From: Streptomyces sp. NRRL S-337
Lineage (GTDB): Bacteria; Actinomycetota; Actinomycetes; Streptomycetales; Streptomycetaceae
Assembly: GCF_000720175.1 (NCBI RefSeq)
Contig: NZ_JOIX01000031.1
Location: forward strand, 1-64,000
Length of the DNA: 64,000 nucleotides
Reading direction: 5' to 3'
Part shown: positions 38 through 3,647 of the stretch, piece after piece
Position numbering within the stretch: position 1 is the first letter of the stretch
How the letters are laid out: every line of letters starts with the position of its first letter
The notes under the pieces: model-generated
The model's input: the letters and a program-made list of their open reading frames with translations, nothing else
Told to the model about the DNA's origin: nothing
Databases searched by the model: none
Translations under genes and position numbers: made by a program

Positions 38-472
38 CTACGAAGCCGAGCCCTTGGGTTCCGGGTGGGGCGGGATGGTGAGGAGGGGGTGGTAGAGGGA
101 GGTGTCGGGGGGCGCCGATGGGGCGGCCGTTGACGGCTACCCAGGCGTGGGCTCGGAAGGGCTGGGTGCGTAGCCGGTGCACCACTGGGGCCAGCGGCCG
201 CGGAGGCGGCAGAAGAGGGCGGTGGCCACGGAGCGGGGGAGGCAGCCGTTGCCGGCGCAGTGTCTGCTGACCGTGACCACGGTGTGGCGGGCGCGCAGGG
301 CTTCCGGGGCGGTGGCGGGGCGGGCGCCGCGCCGGATGCGTTCCAGCAGGCGGCAGAGCCGGTGCGGGGAGAGGCGGGACAGGGCGCGGGCGGCGGTGAC
401 GGCGCAGTGGGCGGCGCAGCGTTCGCGGACGGTGAGGTGGGCGCGGTTCTCGAAGGAGACGGGGTGGCTCAT
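38..472 (-). pseudogene. Lasso peptide B2 leader peptidase (transglutaminase-like), double frameshift
   Basis: Lasso B2 proteins are cysteine proteases that cut the leader from the precursor before the cyclase closes the ring. The first 100 residues fit the family, with the catalytic Cys in an NGCLPRS motif near residue 75. As written, the frame then breaks after WCTG and meets TAG at 137-139. The next frame encodes RTQPFRAHAWVAVNGRP, which is the expected catalytic-His segment. After the C run at 107-112 the original frame returns and gives PDTSLYHPLLTIPP, ending with TAG at 38-40. One missing base near 170-176 and one extra C would restore about 144 residues, the normal family length. Either the gene is damaged or the sequence has two compensating errors. 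The ATG at 470-472 overlaps the stop of the RRE gene (ATGA). Confidence 0.72.
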
Positions 473-726
473 GGGGTCAACAGCCGGGCGGTGAGCAGGG
501 AGTCCAGCAGGGCCCGGGCGTCGGCCTCGGCGTGGTCGCCGGCGGACGGGTGGCGGGCGCGTAATGCCTCGGCGGCGGTCCGGCAGGTTCCGCCGGTGAG
601 GAGGTGGTCGAGGACGAGGGTGGCGGTCGCGTTCATCTGCCAGTAGCGGCCGGTGCGGGTGTCGAGCAGGACCGTGCCGTCGGCCGCGCGGGTGCTGGTG
701 ACGTGCGGGGCGACTGCGAGGGTCAT
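469..726 (-). CDS. Lasso peptide B1 protein, stand-alone RRE (PqqD-like)
   Basis: This 85-residue protein fits the PqqD-like RiPP recognition element that binds the precursor leader and presents it to the B2 peptidase and cyclase. The segment VLLDTRTGRYWQMNATATLVLDHLL is typical of lasso B1 proteins. Its start codon overlaps the cyclase stop (ATGA at 723-726) and its stop overlaps the B2 start, so cyclase, B1 and B2 look translationally coupled. Codon 55 is TTA (562-564), the rare leucine codon read by the bldA tRNA in Streptomyces, which suggests that translation is limited to late growth. Assignment rests on sequence pattern and context. Confidence 0.85.
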   Translation of the reverse strand: MTLAVAPHVTSTRAADGTVLLDTRTGRYWQMNATATLVLDHLLTGGTCRTAAEALRARHPSAGDHAEADARALLDSLLTARLLTP

Positions 727-3149
727 GGGGTGCCTCGGGCCGGTGCGGAAAGGGGTGGCGCGGGAAACGGTGGCGCGGAGACCGGCGGTGCGGAGACCGG
801 CGGTGTGGGAAACAGCGGTGCGGGGCGGGAGGGGGCGGGACGGGACGGCCCGGGGACGGCCGCCGGGGTGAGTGCGCGGAGCCAGTACTCGGTGGCGAGG
901 GTGGGGTCCAGTGCGCGCAGGGCGTCGGTCCGCGGCTGGAGCGACGTCAGGTGGTGCCGGAGGACGGCGGGTCGGATCAGACCGCGTTCGGCGAGGCGGG
1001 AGTCGTCGCAGAGCGCGGACAGGGCGCCGCGGTGGGCGCGCAGACCGGCGTAGACCTCGGCGCTGTGCTCGCCCTTCGTGCCGCGGCCGAGCACCGCGTC
1101 GGGCACGATGCCGCGCAGCGCACGGGTCAGCAGCGGCTTGTACACGCCGGGCCGGGCGCGGTCGGCGAGCTGGAGGGTGAGCGCCGCGTCGATGACGGCG
1201 TTGTCGAGGAACGGCGCCTCGTAGTCGACGCCGTGCGGGGCGGTGAGGGCGACGGCGCCGCGGACGATCTCCCCGGAGCGGACGGCGGCGCGCACGATGT
1301 CGTGCTGGCAGCGCAGCGGCGCGAACGGTTCGGGTGCCTCGGCGGCGGCCTCGCGCAGCAGCCGGCGGACGGTGGCGACGGCGTCCGGATGTGCCCACGG
1401 CGGCAGGCTGGGCAGGACCTCCCAGTCGGCGCCGCAGATCCGGGGATCACCGCCGGTGGTCACCCGGGAGGCGCTGCCGGCCAGCCAGCGCGGATACGGG
1501 CGGCCGCCCAGCAGCGTGCGCAGGGTCTGGGAGGTCTTCCAGTGGCAGAGGTGGTGCACCGTCCAGGCGCGCCGGGCGGCGGTGCGCAGATCGCTGCGGG
1601 CAAGGGAGTTGAGGGCGGCCGGGCGGTGGGCGAACAGTTCGTCGCCGCCGACGCCGACGAGGTGCAGCCGGGAGCCGCGGGCGGCGACGAGACGGGCCTG
1701 GTGGGCGATCCGGGCGGCCTCCCGGAAGAGGGCGAGGGGGGCGGCCGGGTCGGTGGCGGTGGGGGTCAGGGGGTGGTGGGGCGGGGTGTACCAGGTGGGG
1801 GCGTCGGCGTAGGGGAGGGAGAGGTGGAGCGAGAGGTGTTCGCCCGCCTGGGGCTGTGAGCGCGACCGCGGGCTGTGGCCCGTACTCCTGCCGCTGCCTC
1901 CGCCGCTACCTCTGCCCCTGTCCCTGGCTCTCCCGCTGCTCCCGCCCGGGGTCGTTCCGCTCGGCCTGTACTCGCCCGTCGCGTTTCGCTCGCTCTTGTT
2001 CTTGTCCTTGCCTTTTTCTTTGCCCTTGCCCTGGCCGTGGGTGGTGTCCCCCTCTGTGCGTGGGGTTCGACCGCAGCCGGGGTCTGAGCCTGGGGCGGCC
2101 GACTGTTCGCGTTGGCGTTCGGCGGCGCTCAGGTAGGCCGCGCTGCGGGCGCTCCACATGGTGTCGTCGTTGCCGGGATCGCGGCCCACCCAGGAGGTGG
2201 TGATCAGCCGGACGTCCTCCTGGGCGGCGAGGAAGCACAGGCCGGTGGAGTCGGTGCCGCCGGAGAGGTCGGCGCTGAGGGTGGGACGGGCCGCGGCCTG
2301 GCTCGGAGCCTGGCCTGCCCCGTACGTGGTTCCGCCGGTGGAGGCGCCCGCGGTTCCGCCGGTGGCTCCGCTTGTGGCTCCGCCCGTGGCCCTGCCCGTA
2401 TCGGCCGGCTCGGTCCGCTCGGTCCGCTCGGCCTGGCGTCGGGCGCGGTGGGTGCGGGCCGCTATGGCGTCGCTGAGGGCCTGGCGTACGGTCTCGGCGG
2501 CGCGTTCCAGGGGGACGTCCGGTTCCGGCGGTTGCCACCAACGGGCCACGGTGGGCTGCCCGTTGGCGTCCACGGTGAGGTGGTGGCCTGGGGGGACGGC
2601 CGGTACCGCGCGCCACAGCGGGCGCAGGGCGAGGGGGAGCGGGGCGAACGGGAACAGCAGGCGCAGCGCCAGGGATTCCTCGTCGAGCAGACCGGTGCCG
2701 GGGGCGCCGGGCGGCAGTCCGCCGGTGGCCGCGCTGCGGGCGAGCGCCGCCAGGTTCTGGGGCTGGTTGCCGGCGACGGTGATGCCGCCGATCCGGGCGT
2801 GATGGAGCTGGTGGACCGTCGCGAGGTCGCCCTGACAGCGCAGCTCCGGGCCGACGGCGGCCAGGAGGACGTAGCTGCCGGGGAGTTGGCGGGTGCGCCG
2901 GGCGATGCCGTCGAGGCCGTCGGGACCGTGCAGCAGCCGGGCCAGGGTGTCCGGGCGGGCGGAGGTGGTGCCGAGGAGAACGGCGCGGCGCGGGCCCGCC
3001 TCCGCTGTCAGGATCTGGTCCGCGGACCATCGGCCCACGATCCAGGGGCGGCCCGAGGGGTGGCGGAGGATCTGTGCGGGCGGACCGGCGGGCAGGTGCC
3101 GGCAGAGGGCGTCGGTTGCGGGGTGGTCGGGGAAGACGAGGAAGTCCAC
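723..3149 (-). CDS. Lasso peptide cyclase, asparagine synthetase-like
   Basis: The enzyme activates the ring-forming Asp/Glu side chain of the precursor with ATP and joins it to the amine of core residue 1. It has an AsnB-like N-terminal domain without the catalytic Cys2 of true glutaminases (it starts MDFLVFPD) and an ATP-pyrophosphatase loop SGGTDSTG around residues 296-303. A second typical segment, GVDYEAPFLDN, is followed by a KPLLTRALRG region. At 808 residues it is about 200 longer than usual. The excess is low-complexity sequence: a Gly/Thr/Ala stretch near residues 236-287, a Lys/Arg/Gly/Ser stretch near 347-438, and a Pro/Ala-rich tail with repeated VSAPP units. It lies downstream of the precursor gene and is coupled to B1. 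Confidence 0.88.
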   Translation of the reverse strand: MDFLVFPDHPATDALCRHLPAGPPAQILRHPSGRPWIVGRWSADQILTAEAGPRRAVLLGTTSARPDTLARLLHGPDGLDGIARRTRQLPGSYVLLAAVGPELRCQGDLATVHQLHHARIGGITVAGNQPQNLAALARSAATGGLPPGAPGTGLLDEESLALRLLFPFAPLPLALRPLWRAVPAVPPGHHLTVDANGQPTVARWWQPPEPDVPLERAAETVRQALSDAIAARTHRARRQAERTERTEPADTGRATGGATSGATGGTAGASTGGTTYGAGQAPSQAAARPTLSADLSGGTDSTGLCFLAAQEDVRLITTSWVGRDPGNDDTMWSARSAAYLSAAERQREQSAAPGSDPGCGRTPRTEGDTTHGQGKGKEKGKDKNKSERNATGEYRPSGTTPGGSSGRARDRGRGSGGGSGRSTGHSPRSRSQPQAGEHLSLHLSLPYADAPTWYTPPHHPLTPTATDPAAPLALFREAARIAHQARLVAARGSRLHLVGVGGDELFAHRPAALNSLARSDLRTAARRAWTVHHLCHWKTSQTLRTLLGGRPYPRWLAGSASRVTTGGDPRICGADWEVLPSLPPWAHPDAVATVRRLLREAAAEAPEPFAPLRCQHDIVRAAVRSGEIVRGAVALTAPHGVDYEAPFLDNAVIDAALTLQLADRARPGVYKPLLTRALRGIVPDAVLGRGTKGEHSAEVYAGLRAHRGALSALCDDSRLAERGLIRPAVLRHHLTSLQPRTDALRALDPTLATEYWLRALTPAAVPGPSRPAPSRPAPLFPTPPVSAPPVSAPPFPAPPLSAPARGTP

Positions 3150-3245: not shown

Positions 3246-3413
3246 TCACCACCCGAAGAAGCCGGCCCAGCCGTCCCAGTGGTAGCCGGTGTAGCCGAGC
3301 GTCAGCTCGGTGAAGTTGCCCACCTCGACGAGCTGCGGCGGCTCGTAGTCGGTGGCGGTGGCGGTGGTGCCGGTGATGTCGGGGACGGTCGGCACCTCGT
3401 GCGTGTCCTGCAT
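3246..3413 (-). CDS. Lasso peptide precursor
   Basis: A 55-residue precursor lies 96 bp upstream of the cyclase gene. The leader has the RRE-binding motif YxxPxL (YEPPQL at residues 23-28) and ends in ...FTELTL, which puts Thr at position -2 of the cleavage site, the usual lasso rule. The predicted core is residues 40-55, GYTGYHWDGWAGFFGW. Gly1 and Asp8 would form an eight-residue macrolactam ring, leaving an eight-residue tail rich in Trp and Phe that could act as steric plugs. There are no Cys residues, so a class II lasso fold is expected. The start is supported by an AAGGGAG ribosome site 6 nt upstream. I do not recognise the core as a characterised lasso peptide, but could not search. 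Confidence 0.88.
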   Translation of the reverse strand: MQDTHEVPTVPDITGTTATATDYEPPQLVEVGNFTELTLGYTGYHWDGWAGFFGW

Positions 3414-3647
3414 GGTTCACTCCCTTCGCTCTTCTCCGGGCACGCTCGCGCCGCCTCGCCACGGAACGTGCCCGTGTGATTACTCACCGCGTTCGACGAA
3501 AATGCTGACAGCGTCCCGGCCGCCTGCCATTACCTCGAACGAGTGGTGTCAGGGGGCGTGCGAGGCACTTCGGTGTCACTTCGTCCGGCGTGTACGCCTC
3601 TGCGTCCAGGTCGCTCACGCACAGGGCCGGTGGCGCGTGAGCGCAAG

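What the first reader, a model, noticed from the sequence alone, without database searches (positions are those of the whole stretch)
3246..3413. Lasso peptide precursor with an aromatic-rich 16-residue core
A 55-residue precursor with a YxxPxL leader motif, Thr at -2 and the core GYTGYHWDGWAGFFGW sits next to an RRE protein and a lasso cyclase. Gly1-Asp8 ring closure leaves a Trp/Phe-rich tail with C-terminal Trp. No Cys, so a class II fold. I do not recall a described lasso peptide with this core.
Basis: partly seen in the sequence, partly recalled or inferred. Interest (0 to 1): 0.7.

Follow-up and report, generated by a model that had tools for sequence, protein, structure and literature searches.

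The report
Lasso peptide gene with broken protease
A Streptomyces genome carries a genuine gene for a lasso-shaped peptide with a Trp/Phe-rich sequence that was not found in print, but the protease gene that should release the peptide looks broken, so this strain may no longer make it.

Summary
The precursor at 3246-3413 (-) is real: 55 aa, lasso-leader HMM hit above cut-off, YEPPQL motif, Thr(-2), core GYTGYHWDGWAGFFGW, followed by a lasso cyclase (723-3149) and an RRE protein (469-726). It lies near a contig end, so a sequence error is possible. The locus is ancestral: narK/hemD on one side and smpB/ftsX on the other also in four other Streptomyces. Near-identical cores, all with Asp8, occur in S. 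nigrescens, S. endophytica and an unnamed source. In this group the locus erodes: S. nigrescens lacks B2 and half of B1, S. lydicus lacks A and B1, while five other orthologues are complete. The core was not found in print. Best reading: a class II lasso precursor with a new core in a recently disabled cluster; a new member of a known kind. Boldest reading left: maturation in trans by other lasso loci; precursors without a nearby cyclase exist in three other Streptomyces genomes.

The parts
3246..3413 (-). Lasso precursor gene A (55 aa + stop)
   Evidence: ORF; NF033521 35.7 bits over cut-off 19; homologues
3297..3413 (-). Leader peptide, 39 aa, YEPPQL motif, Thr at -2
   Evidence: read from sequence; Y23, E24, P26, L28, T38 invariant in the 8-sequence alignment
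3249..3296 (-). Core GYTGYHWDGWAGFFGW, Gly1 and Asp8 the predicted ring ends
   Evidence: G40 and D47 of the precursor invariant; ring closure itself inferred
3420..3426 (-). Ribosome-binding-like AAGGGAG
   Evidence: read from sequence
723..3149 (-). Lasso cyclase C (808 aa) with two low-complexity inserts not present in L040/L044
   Evidence: PF00733 1.7e-26; NF033561 215.6 bits, below its cut-off 300; alignment
469..726 (-). RRE protein B1 (85 aa), start overlaps the cyclase stop
   Evidence: PF05402, NF033530 90.7 bits over cut-off 70
137..472 (-). B2 leader peptidase, N-terminal 111 aa only, stops early after a frameshift near 172
   Evidence: PF13471 53 bits, NF033537 74.8 bits over cut-off 33; alignments
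113..172 (-). Out-of-frame stretch of B2 that holds the AHAWV motif, between a 1-base and a 2-base deletion
   Evidence: the other-frame piece (3-185) hits NF033537 at 22.9 bits, below cut-off

Best explanation
This is a genuine class II-type lasso peptide precursor gene of an ancestral, compact A-C-B1-B2 locus of Streptomyces. As the locus was built, B1 binds the YEPPQL leader, B2 cuts after Thr-Leu to free Gly1, and the cyclase activates Asp8 and joins it to Gly1 around a Trp/Phe-rich tail. In this strain B2 is truly frameshifted, so its own cluster no longer makes the product, as part of an erosion of the locus in the group of S. nigrescens and S. lydicus. Shown by sequence: the genes, the motifs, the lesion in the assembly, the synteny and the missing genes in relatives. 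Inferred: the biochemical steps, the threading, and that the lesion abolishes production.
For: Leader, RRE and B2 models over cut-off. The cyclase frame is open and constrained: window against S. nigrescens dN/dS 0.39 over 619 codons, different from neutral at p 1.7e-5. Core 15/16 identical to S. nigrescens and to P0002, and the same in S. endophytica but for Y2F, T3S and a 3-residue insert. Shared flanks in S. nigrescens, S. endophytica, S. monomycini and sp. CB02923 and on the far side in this genome's contig C117. The two B2 deletions are absent from the 4 orthologues that got into the alignment (L036, L040, L128, L129); L044 and L127 read through this stretch in open frame in the same call, L130. 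Other losses nearby: S. nigrescens B1 diverges after about 45 aa and B2 is gone; S. lydicus has no A and no B1; its cyclase is closer to the window's (72%) than to those of L040 and L044 (61 and 60%). The cyclase is less constrained than narK+hemD+helR in the same pair (48:46 against 51:102 nonsynonymous:synonymous, p 0.007; rsbN left out, its ratio is 9.5:16.5).
Against: The lesion is within 180 bases of a contig end, and no second copy of these bases was found in the assembly, so an error is not excluded. S. endophytica, the third close relative, keeps an intact B2. Its cyclase and B1 shifts are not counted as decay because its narK, hemD and rsbN are split too. The core shows too few changes to prove or deny selection (1 nonsynonymous, 2 synonymous; P 0.10-0.24 under neutrality). 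A cited title (pseudomycoidin, seen in reference lists) reports lasso synthesis without leader and leader peptidase, so loss of B2 need not always stop a lasso pathway, though here the leader is still present.
Confidence: 0.58

Rival explanations
1. The B2 frameshift is a sequence or assembly error at the contig end; the cluster is complete and makes a 16-residue Gly1-Asp8 class II lasso peptide.
For: Window starts at base 1 of contig C31; lesion at about 113-172; the B2 frame and the old stop region resume after the second deletion; S. endophytica B2 is intact.
Against: Two separate deletions, of 1 and 2 bases; B2 is missing altogether from the locus in the complete genome of S. nigrescens, so loss does occur in this group.
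Confidence: 0.26
2. The locus still works although its own B2 is broken: B2 (and in S. nigrescens B1 too) is supplied in trans by other lasso clusters of the same genome.
For: G000 has two further B2 genes inside lasso clusters; S. nigrescens has three B2-family matches, one of them weak, none at this locus; S. endophytica, with a single B2 match in the genome, keeps it intact. The leader of the C1 cluster (YAAPMLVEVGEFNEDT, L095) resembles this one. Precursors with no cyclase, B1 or B2 on the fetched stretch occur in G036 (4), S. rimosus (1) and S. varsoviensis (3).
Against: RREs are reported to discriminate between leaders (PMC13381572, abstract and passages; shown there for another pair of systems). 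S. lydicus kept B2 and lost A. Selection on the core is not demonstrable. Small sample.
Confidence: 0.16

Closest known systems
Unnamed lasso precursors of S. nigrescens HEK616 (P0003/L035) and S. endophytica HNM0140 (L036), same locus
   Same: Same place, cyclase 80 and 74% identical by tblastn, cores GFTGYHWDGWAGFFGW and GFSGYHWDGWAGRAGFFGW
   Different: 1 substitution; or 2 substitutions and a 3-residue insert in the tail. S. nigrescens lacks B2 and half of B1; S. endophytica B2 is intact
RES-701 lasso peptides (RES-701-1 GNWHGTAPDWFFNYYW, table in PMC12427821)
   Same: 16-residue class II Streptomyces lasso with aromatic tail and C-terminal Trp; A-C-B1-B2 order (PMC7280977 passages)
   Different: The table's sequence has its Asp at 9 (a passage of PMC7280977 says Asp-8); 7 identities, not above shuffled cores (p 0.535); the RES cluster also has resE, resF and resD, which I did not search for here and do not recognise among the neighbours
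Huascopeptin (GYGNAWDSKNGLF) and achromosin (GIGSQTWDTIWLWD)
   Same: Trp just before the presumed ring Asp; class II
   Different: 13 and 14 residues; ring at Asp7 in huascopeptin (title of the cited paper); huascopeptin scores above shuffles (p 0.006, 31 compared, not corrected), achromosin does not (p 0.3)
Cattlecin/moomysin (SYHWGDYHDWHHGWYGWWDD)
   Same: Trp/Tyr/His-rich; best raw score of the 31 known cores compared
   Different: 20 residues, Ser1; similarity not above shuffles (p 0.1)

Membership tests
Lasso peptide (class II) precursor | YxxPxL leader motif recognised by the RRE | tested here: met
   YEPPQL, NF033521 35.7 bits over 19
Lasso peptide (class II) precursor | Thr at -2 | tested here: met
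   FTELTL|G, T38 invariant in 8 sequences
Lasso peptide (class II) precursor | Residue 1 with a free amine plus Asp/Glu at 7-9 for the macrolactam | tested here: met
   Gly1, Asp8, both invariant in 8 sequences
Lasso peptide (class II) precursor | No Cys in the core (class II) | tested here: met
   core read
Lasso peptide biosynthetic cluster | Cyclase (asparagine synthetase-like) next to the precursor | tested here: met
   PF00733 1.7e-26; SGGTDS motif kept
Lasso peptide biosynthetic cluster | RRE protein B1 | tested here: met
   NF033530 90.7 bits over 70
Lasso peptide biosynthetic cluster | Intact leader peptidase B2 | tested here: not met
   frameshift and early stop; may be a contig-end error
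Lasso peptide biosynthetic cluster | ABC transporter D (frequent, not obligatory) | tested here: inconclusive
   None recognised among the neighbours; contig C117 opens with the LysR-like gene and then SmpB- and FtsX-like genes, but the gap between C31 and C117 is not sequenced and no ABC model was run over the genome
Lasso peptide | Threaded, isopeptide-bonded product | not testable with these tools
   needs mass spectrometry/NMR
Albusnodin family | NCBIfam albusnodin precursor model and albusnodin/ikarugamycin cyclase model over cut-off | tested here: not met
   NF033525 19.1 of 30 bits; NF033561 215.6 of 300 bits
RES-701 family | Core alike beyond composition | tested here: not met
   p 0.535 against shuffles

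The most novel reading that the evidence does not exclude
In this group of Streptomyces the lasso precursor is no longer matured by its own cluster but in trans: B1/B2 (or the whole machine) come from another lasso locus. The window (B2 broken), S. nigrescens (half of B1 and all of B2 gone), the stand-alone precursors of S. rimosus and G036, and the S. varsoviensis arrangement would be stages of one process, lasso precursors uncoupling from their maturases.
Probability: 0.14. Interest if true: 0.6.

Novelty: new member of a known kind. Interest (0 to 1): 0.35.

Why it matters
The core adds a Trp/Phe-rich sequence family (G-[FY]-x-G-x-x-W-D ring, in most members) that my text searches did not find among described class II lasso peptides. 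More useful is the warning: genome mining by precursor alone would list this strain as a producer although its leader peptidase looks broken. Relatives with complete clusters (sp. CB02923, S. monomycini, S. rimosus) are better strains to look for the family, and the stand-alone precursors give a direct test of whether lasso enzymes act in trans.

Tried and rejected
Albusnodin-type cluster: model scores below cut-offs, rejected. Defence association of the cyclase: no PADLOC hit. Solved structures by sequence for the cyclase and B2: none at the thresholds used. Sigma-70-like promoter or terminator around A: none found, uninformative for Streptomyces. Counting S. endophytica's frameshifts as decay: rejected, because narK, hemD and rsbN in the same assembly are split too. 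A first Fisher test used site totals that I had estimated wrongly; redone with 526/1331, worked out by hand from the dS/dN values. In one search the narK and hemD queries were cut by 70 and 65 codons at their variable starts, only the best tblastn segment of each was used, and the sigma-factor query was mis-started and gave no comparison. G181:C36, G089 and G219 looked like stand-alone precursors in the hit tables, but each has a cyclase beside it, so they were dropped from the orphan count. A copy of the B2 end in another contig was sought and not found. The relatives search mostly redrew genomes. Among the best 120 of 449 hits listed for the B2 search none is shown on a 6175-base contig like that of P0002; this says nothing firm, as the contig may end before B2. 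Structure prediction, fold search, the third protein search and RNA tools were not used.

Full report
The ORF 3246-3413 on the minus strand reads as the finding says. NCBIfam's lasso leader model NF033521 hits it at 35.7 bits against a cut-off of 19. The leader has YEPPQL and Thr at -2 and the core is GYTGYHWDGWAGFFGW. Downstream on the same strand come a cyclase (723-3149, PF00733 E 1.7e-26), an RRE protein (469-726, NF033530 90.7 bits over 70) and a B2 leader peptidase (NF033537 74.8 bits over 33). The stops and starts of C/B1 and of B1/B2 overlap, as in a translationally coupled operon (read). Upstream and divergent lies a NarK-family MFS gene (TIGR00886 296 bits, below its cut-off of 311.7), which the orthologous loci share; I take it for a neighbour, not for an exporter of the peptide.

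The B2 frame that begins at 472 stops at 137 after 111 residues, and the continuation with the AHAWV motif is in another frame (the piece 3-185 hits NF033537 at 22.9 bits, below cut-off). Against the S. endophytica gene the window lacks one base near 172 and two bases near 113; the second deletion brings the frame back to the old stop region, but a stop lies between. In an alignment of the B2 3' part with four orthologues (L036, L040, L128, L129; the others fell out because my seed pattern did not match them) both deletions are unique to the window. L044 and L127 show an open frame through the same stretch, and so does L130. That the His of HAW is catalytic is recalled knowledge of the family. 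The window begins at base 1 of contig C31 (94,756 bases) of a 227-contig assembly. The other side of the locus opens contig C117 with the LysR-like gene, then SmpB- and FtsX-like genes. The two contig ends share no 15-base word and no second copy of the B2 end was found. So I hold the lesion to be probably real but not proven.

The locus is old. A scan of one genome per species with the precursor alignment gave 25 confirmed loci from 43 matched stretches; a cyclase homologue lies on the same locus in 23 of the 25 (exceptions L043 and L055). ORF lists of L035, L036, L040 and L044 show shared neighbours: on one side the narK, hemD, anti-sigma-like and helicase genes in all four, with the malic-enzyme gene listed in L035 and L036; on the other side SmpB- or FtsX-like genes in all four, with the LysR-like gene between only in L035 and L036. 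Families were confirmed by Pfam for hemD (HEM4), the zinc-finger anti-sigma-like protein, the UvrD-type helicase and malic enzyme of the window, for LysR and SmpB of L036 and for SmpB and FtsX of L040; for the other loci the match is by eye from the protein starts. Among these lists I recognise no ABC transporter or tailoring gene in the cluster.

The core is a member of a small family. P0002 (source 'lgn', unnamed) has GYTGYHWDDWAGFFGW, S. nigrescens GFTGYHWDGWAGFFGW and S. endophytica GFSGYHWDGWAGRAGFFGW. Ten of the 25 loci have W7-D8 (L035, L036, L037, L038, L039, L041, L042, L043, L044, L058). In 392 genus genomes, the own one included, 40 had a precursor match at E 0.01 or better, many of them by the leader alone. 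Gly1 and Asp8 are invariant in the eight aligned precursors. This supports ring closure at Asp8; threading and class II locking remain inferred.

State of the locus across nine loci. Complete A-C-B1-B2 with open frames: S. monomycini L040, sp. CB02923 L044 (= L132), S. rimosus L128, G036 L129, G090 L130. Damaged: the window (B2); S. nigrescens L035 (B1 diverges after about 45 aa, no B2); S. lydicus L127 (no A, no B1; no A1 match in its genome at E 1e-4; cyclase and B2 open). S. endophytica L036 has intact B2 but a frame-shifted stretch in C and a shifted end of B1; since its narK, hemD and rsbN are also split, I put these down to the assembly. Thus three of nine loci show losses, each a different one. 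These three and S. endophytica group together by cyclase identity (69-93% among themselves, 58-66% to the L040/L044/L128/L130 cyclases, 606 columns; L129 was left out because my start pattern missed it). That they lost genes one after another from a complete ancestor is inferred.

Selection. Over the 619 ungapped codons the window/S. nigrescens cyclase pair has dN/dS 0.39, against 0.26 narK, 0.12 hemD, 0.19 helR, 0.21 rsbN for the same pair and 0.25 for the cyclases of L040/L044. It is constrained (p 1.7e-5) yet less than narK+hemD+helR together (p 0.007). The precursor core is too short to decide. The cyclases of the window, S. nigrescens and S. endophytica have two low-complexity inserts, before and after the SGGTDS motif, that L040 and L044 lack.

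Is it known? The exact core is in no paper of the open-access full-text library. Of five sub-motifs of the family four gave nothing and one only an unrelated medical paper. Table 1 of PMC12427821 (section 16 read) holds no identical core. Of 31 of its entries that I aligned, only huascopeptin exceeded shuffled cores at p below 0.05 (0.006, uncorrected for 31 tests). By the same test three family cores from other loci are also weak (p 0.016-0.041), so the outer limits of the family are soft. Supplementary tables of large lasso surveys were not searched and may list this core as a prediction; subscription papers are not held. For other papers I saw abstracts or passages only: PMC13352647, PMC7549694, PMC12427821 apart from section 16, PMC13381572, PMC9266682, PMC10885120, PMC7280977; PMC8960859 and PMC5357945 only as search listings.

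In-trans maturation. G000 has two further B2 genes in lasso clusters, one with the exact ulleungdin core, one citrulassin-like (names after the table). S. nigrescens has three B2-family matches (one weak, 42 bits), S. lydicus two including its own, S. endophytica only its own. Stand-alone precursors with no cyclase, B1 or B2 on the fetched stretch were found in G036 (four: C1 at 19.4, 58.4 and 64 kb, C2 at 285.7 kb; the first two encode the same core), S. rimosus G048 (C61) and S. varsoviensis L055/L137 (three in tandem, with the genome's one B2 match on another contig beside a precursor-like ORF whose motif Tyr reads Arg). The literature searches for such dispersed lasso precursors showed none in their listings; the nearest was an abstract on unclustered lanthipeptide proteases (PMC8960859). 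This makes maturation in trans possible, but nothing here shows it.

Verdict: a correct call of a lasso precursor with a new core, of a known kind, in a cluster that is probably disabled by a B2 frameshift in this strain.

Noticed in passing
L092 (G048:C61, S. rimosus), L093/L131 and L094 (G036:C1 and C2): Five intact-looking lasso precursors of the same family with no cyclase, B1 or B2 on the fetched stretches; both genomes hold one complete orthologous cluster elsewhere. The S. rimosus and G036:C2 copies sit in the same surroundings (92% identical DNA over 11.5 kb), near an amine-oxidoreductase-type gene.
   Followed up: partly
L137 and L136 (S. varsoviensis, G552:C34 and C3): Three tandem lasso precursors on one contig; the genome's one B2 match, with C and B1, is on another contig beside a precursor-like ORF whose leader motif has Arg in place of Tyr.
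   Followed up: partly
L095 (G000:C1:272000-290000) and L096 (G000:C41:22000-41000): The window's genome has two further lasso clusters: one core identical to ulleungdin (GFIGWGKDIFGHYGG), one citrulassin-like (LLSSSGNDRLILSKN).
   Followed up: partly
window 723-3149, about residues 240-286 and 348-440 of the cyclase: Two low-complexity inserts before and after the ATP-binding SGGTDS motif (residue 296); shared in differing lengths by S. nigrescens and S. endophytica, absent from S. monomycini and sp. CB02923.
   Followed up: partly
L127 (S. lydicus, G137:C1): The locus keeps cyclase and B2 but has no recognisable precursor or B1.
   Followed up: partly
L036 (S. endophytica): narK, hemD and rsbN each fall into two tblastn segments in this complete genome, which suggests a noisy assembly.
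   Followed up: no
L048, L050, L051: Two or three lasso precursors per locus with Cys-x-Asp-Trp near the ring end and a C-terminal Cys (for example GWDNQCVDWFNGGAWVC).
   Followed up: no
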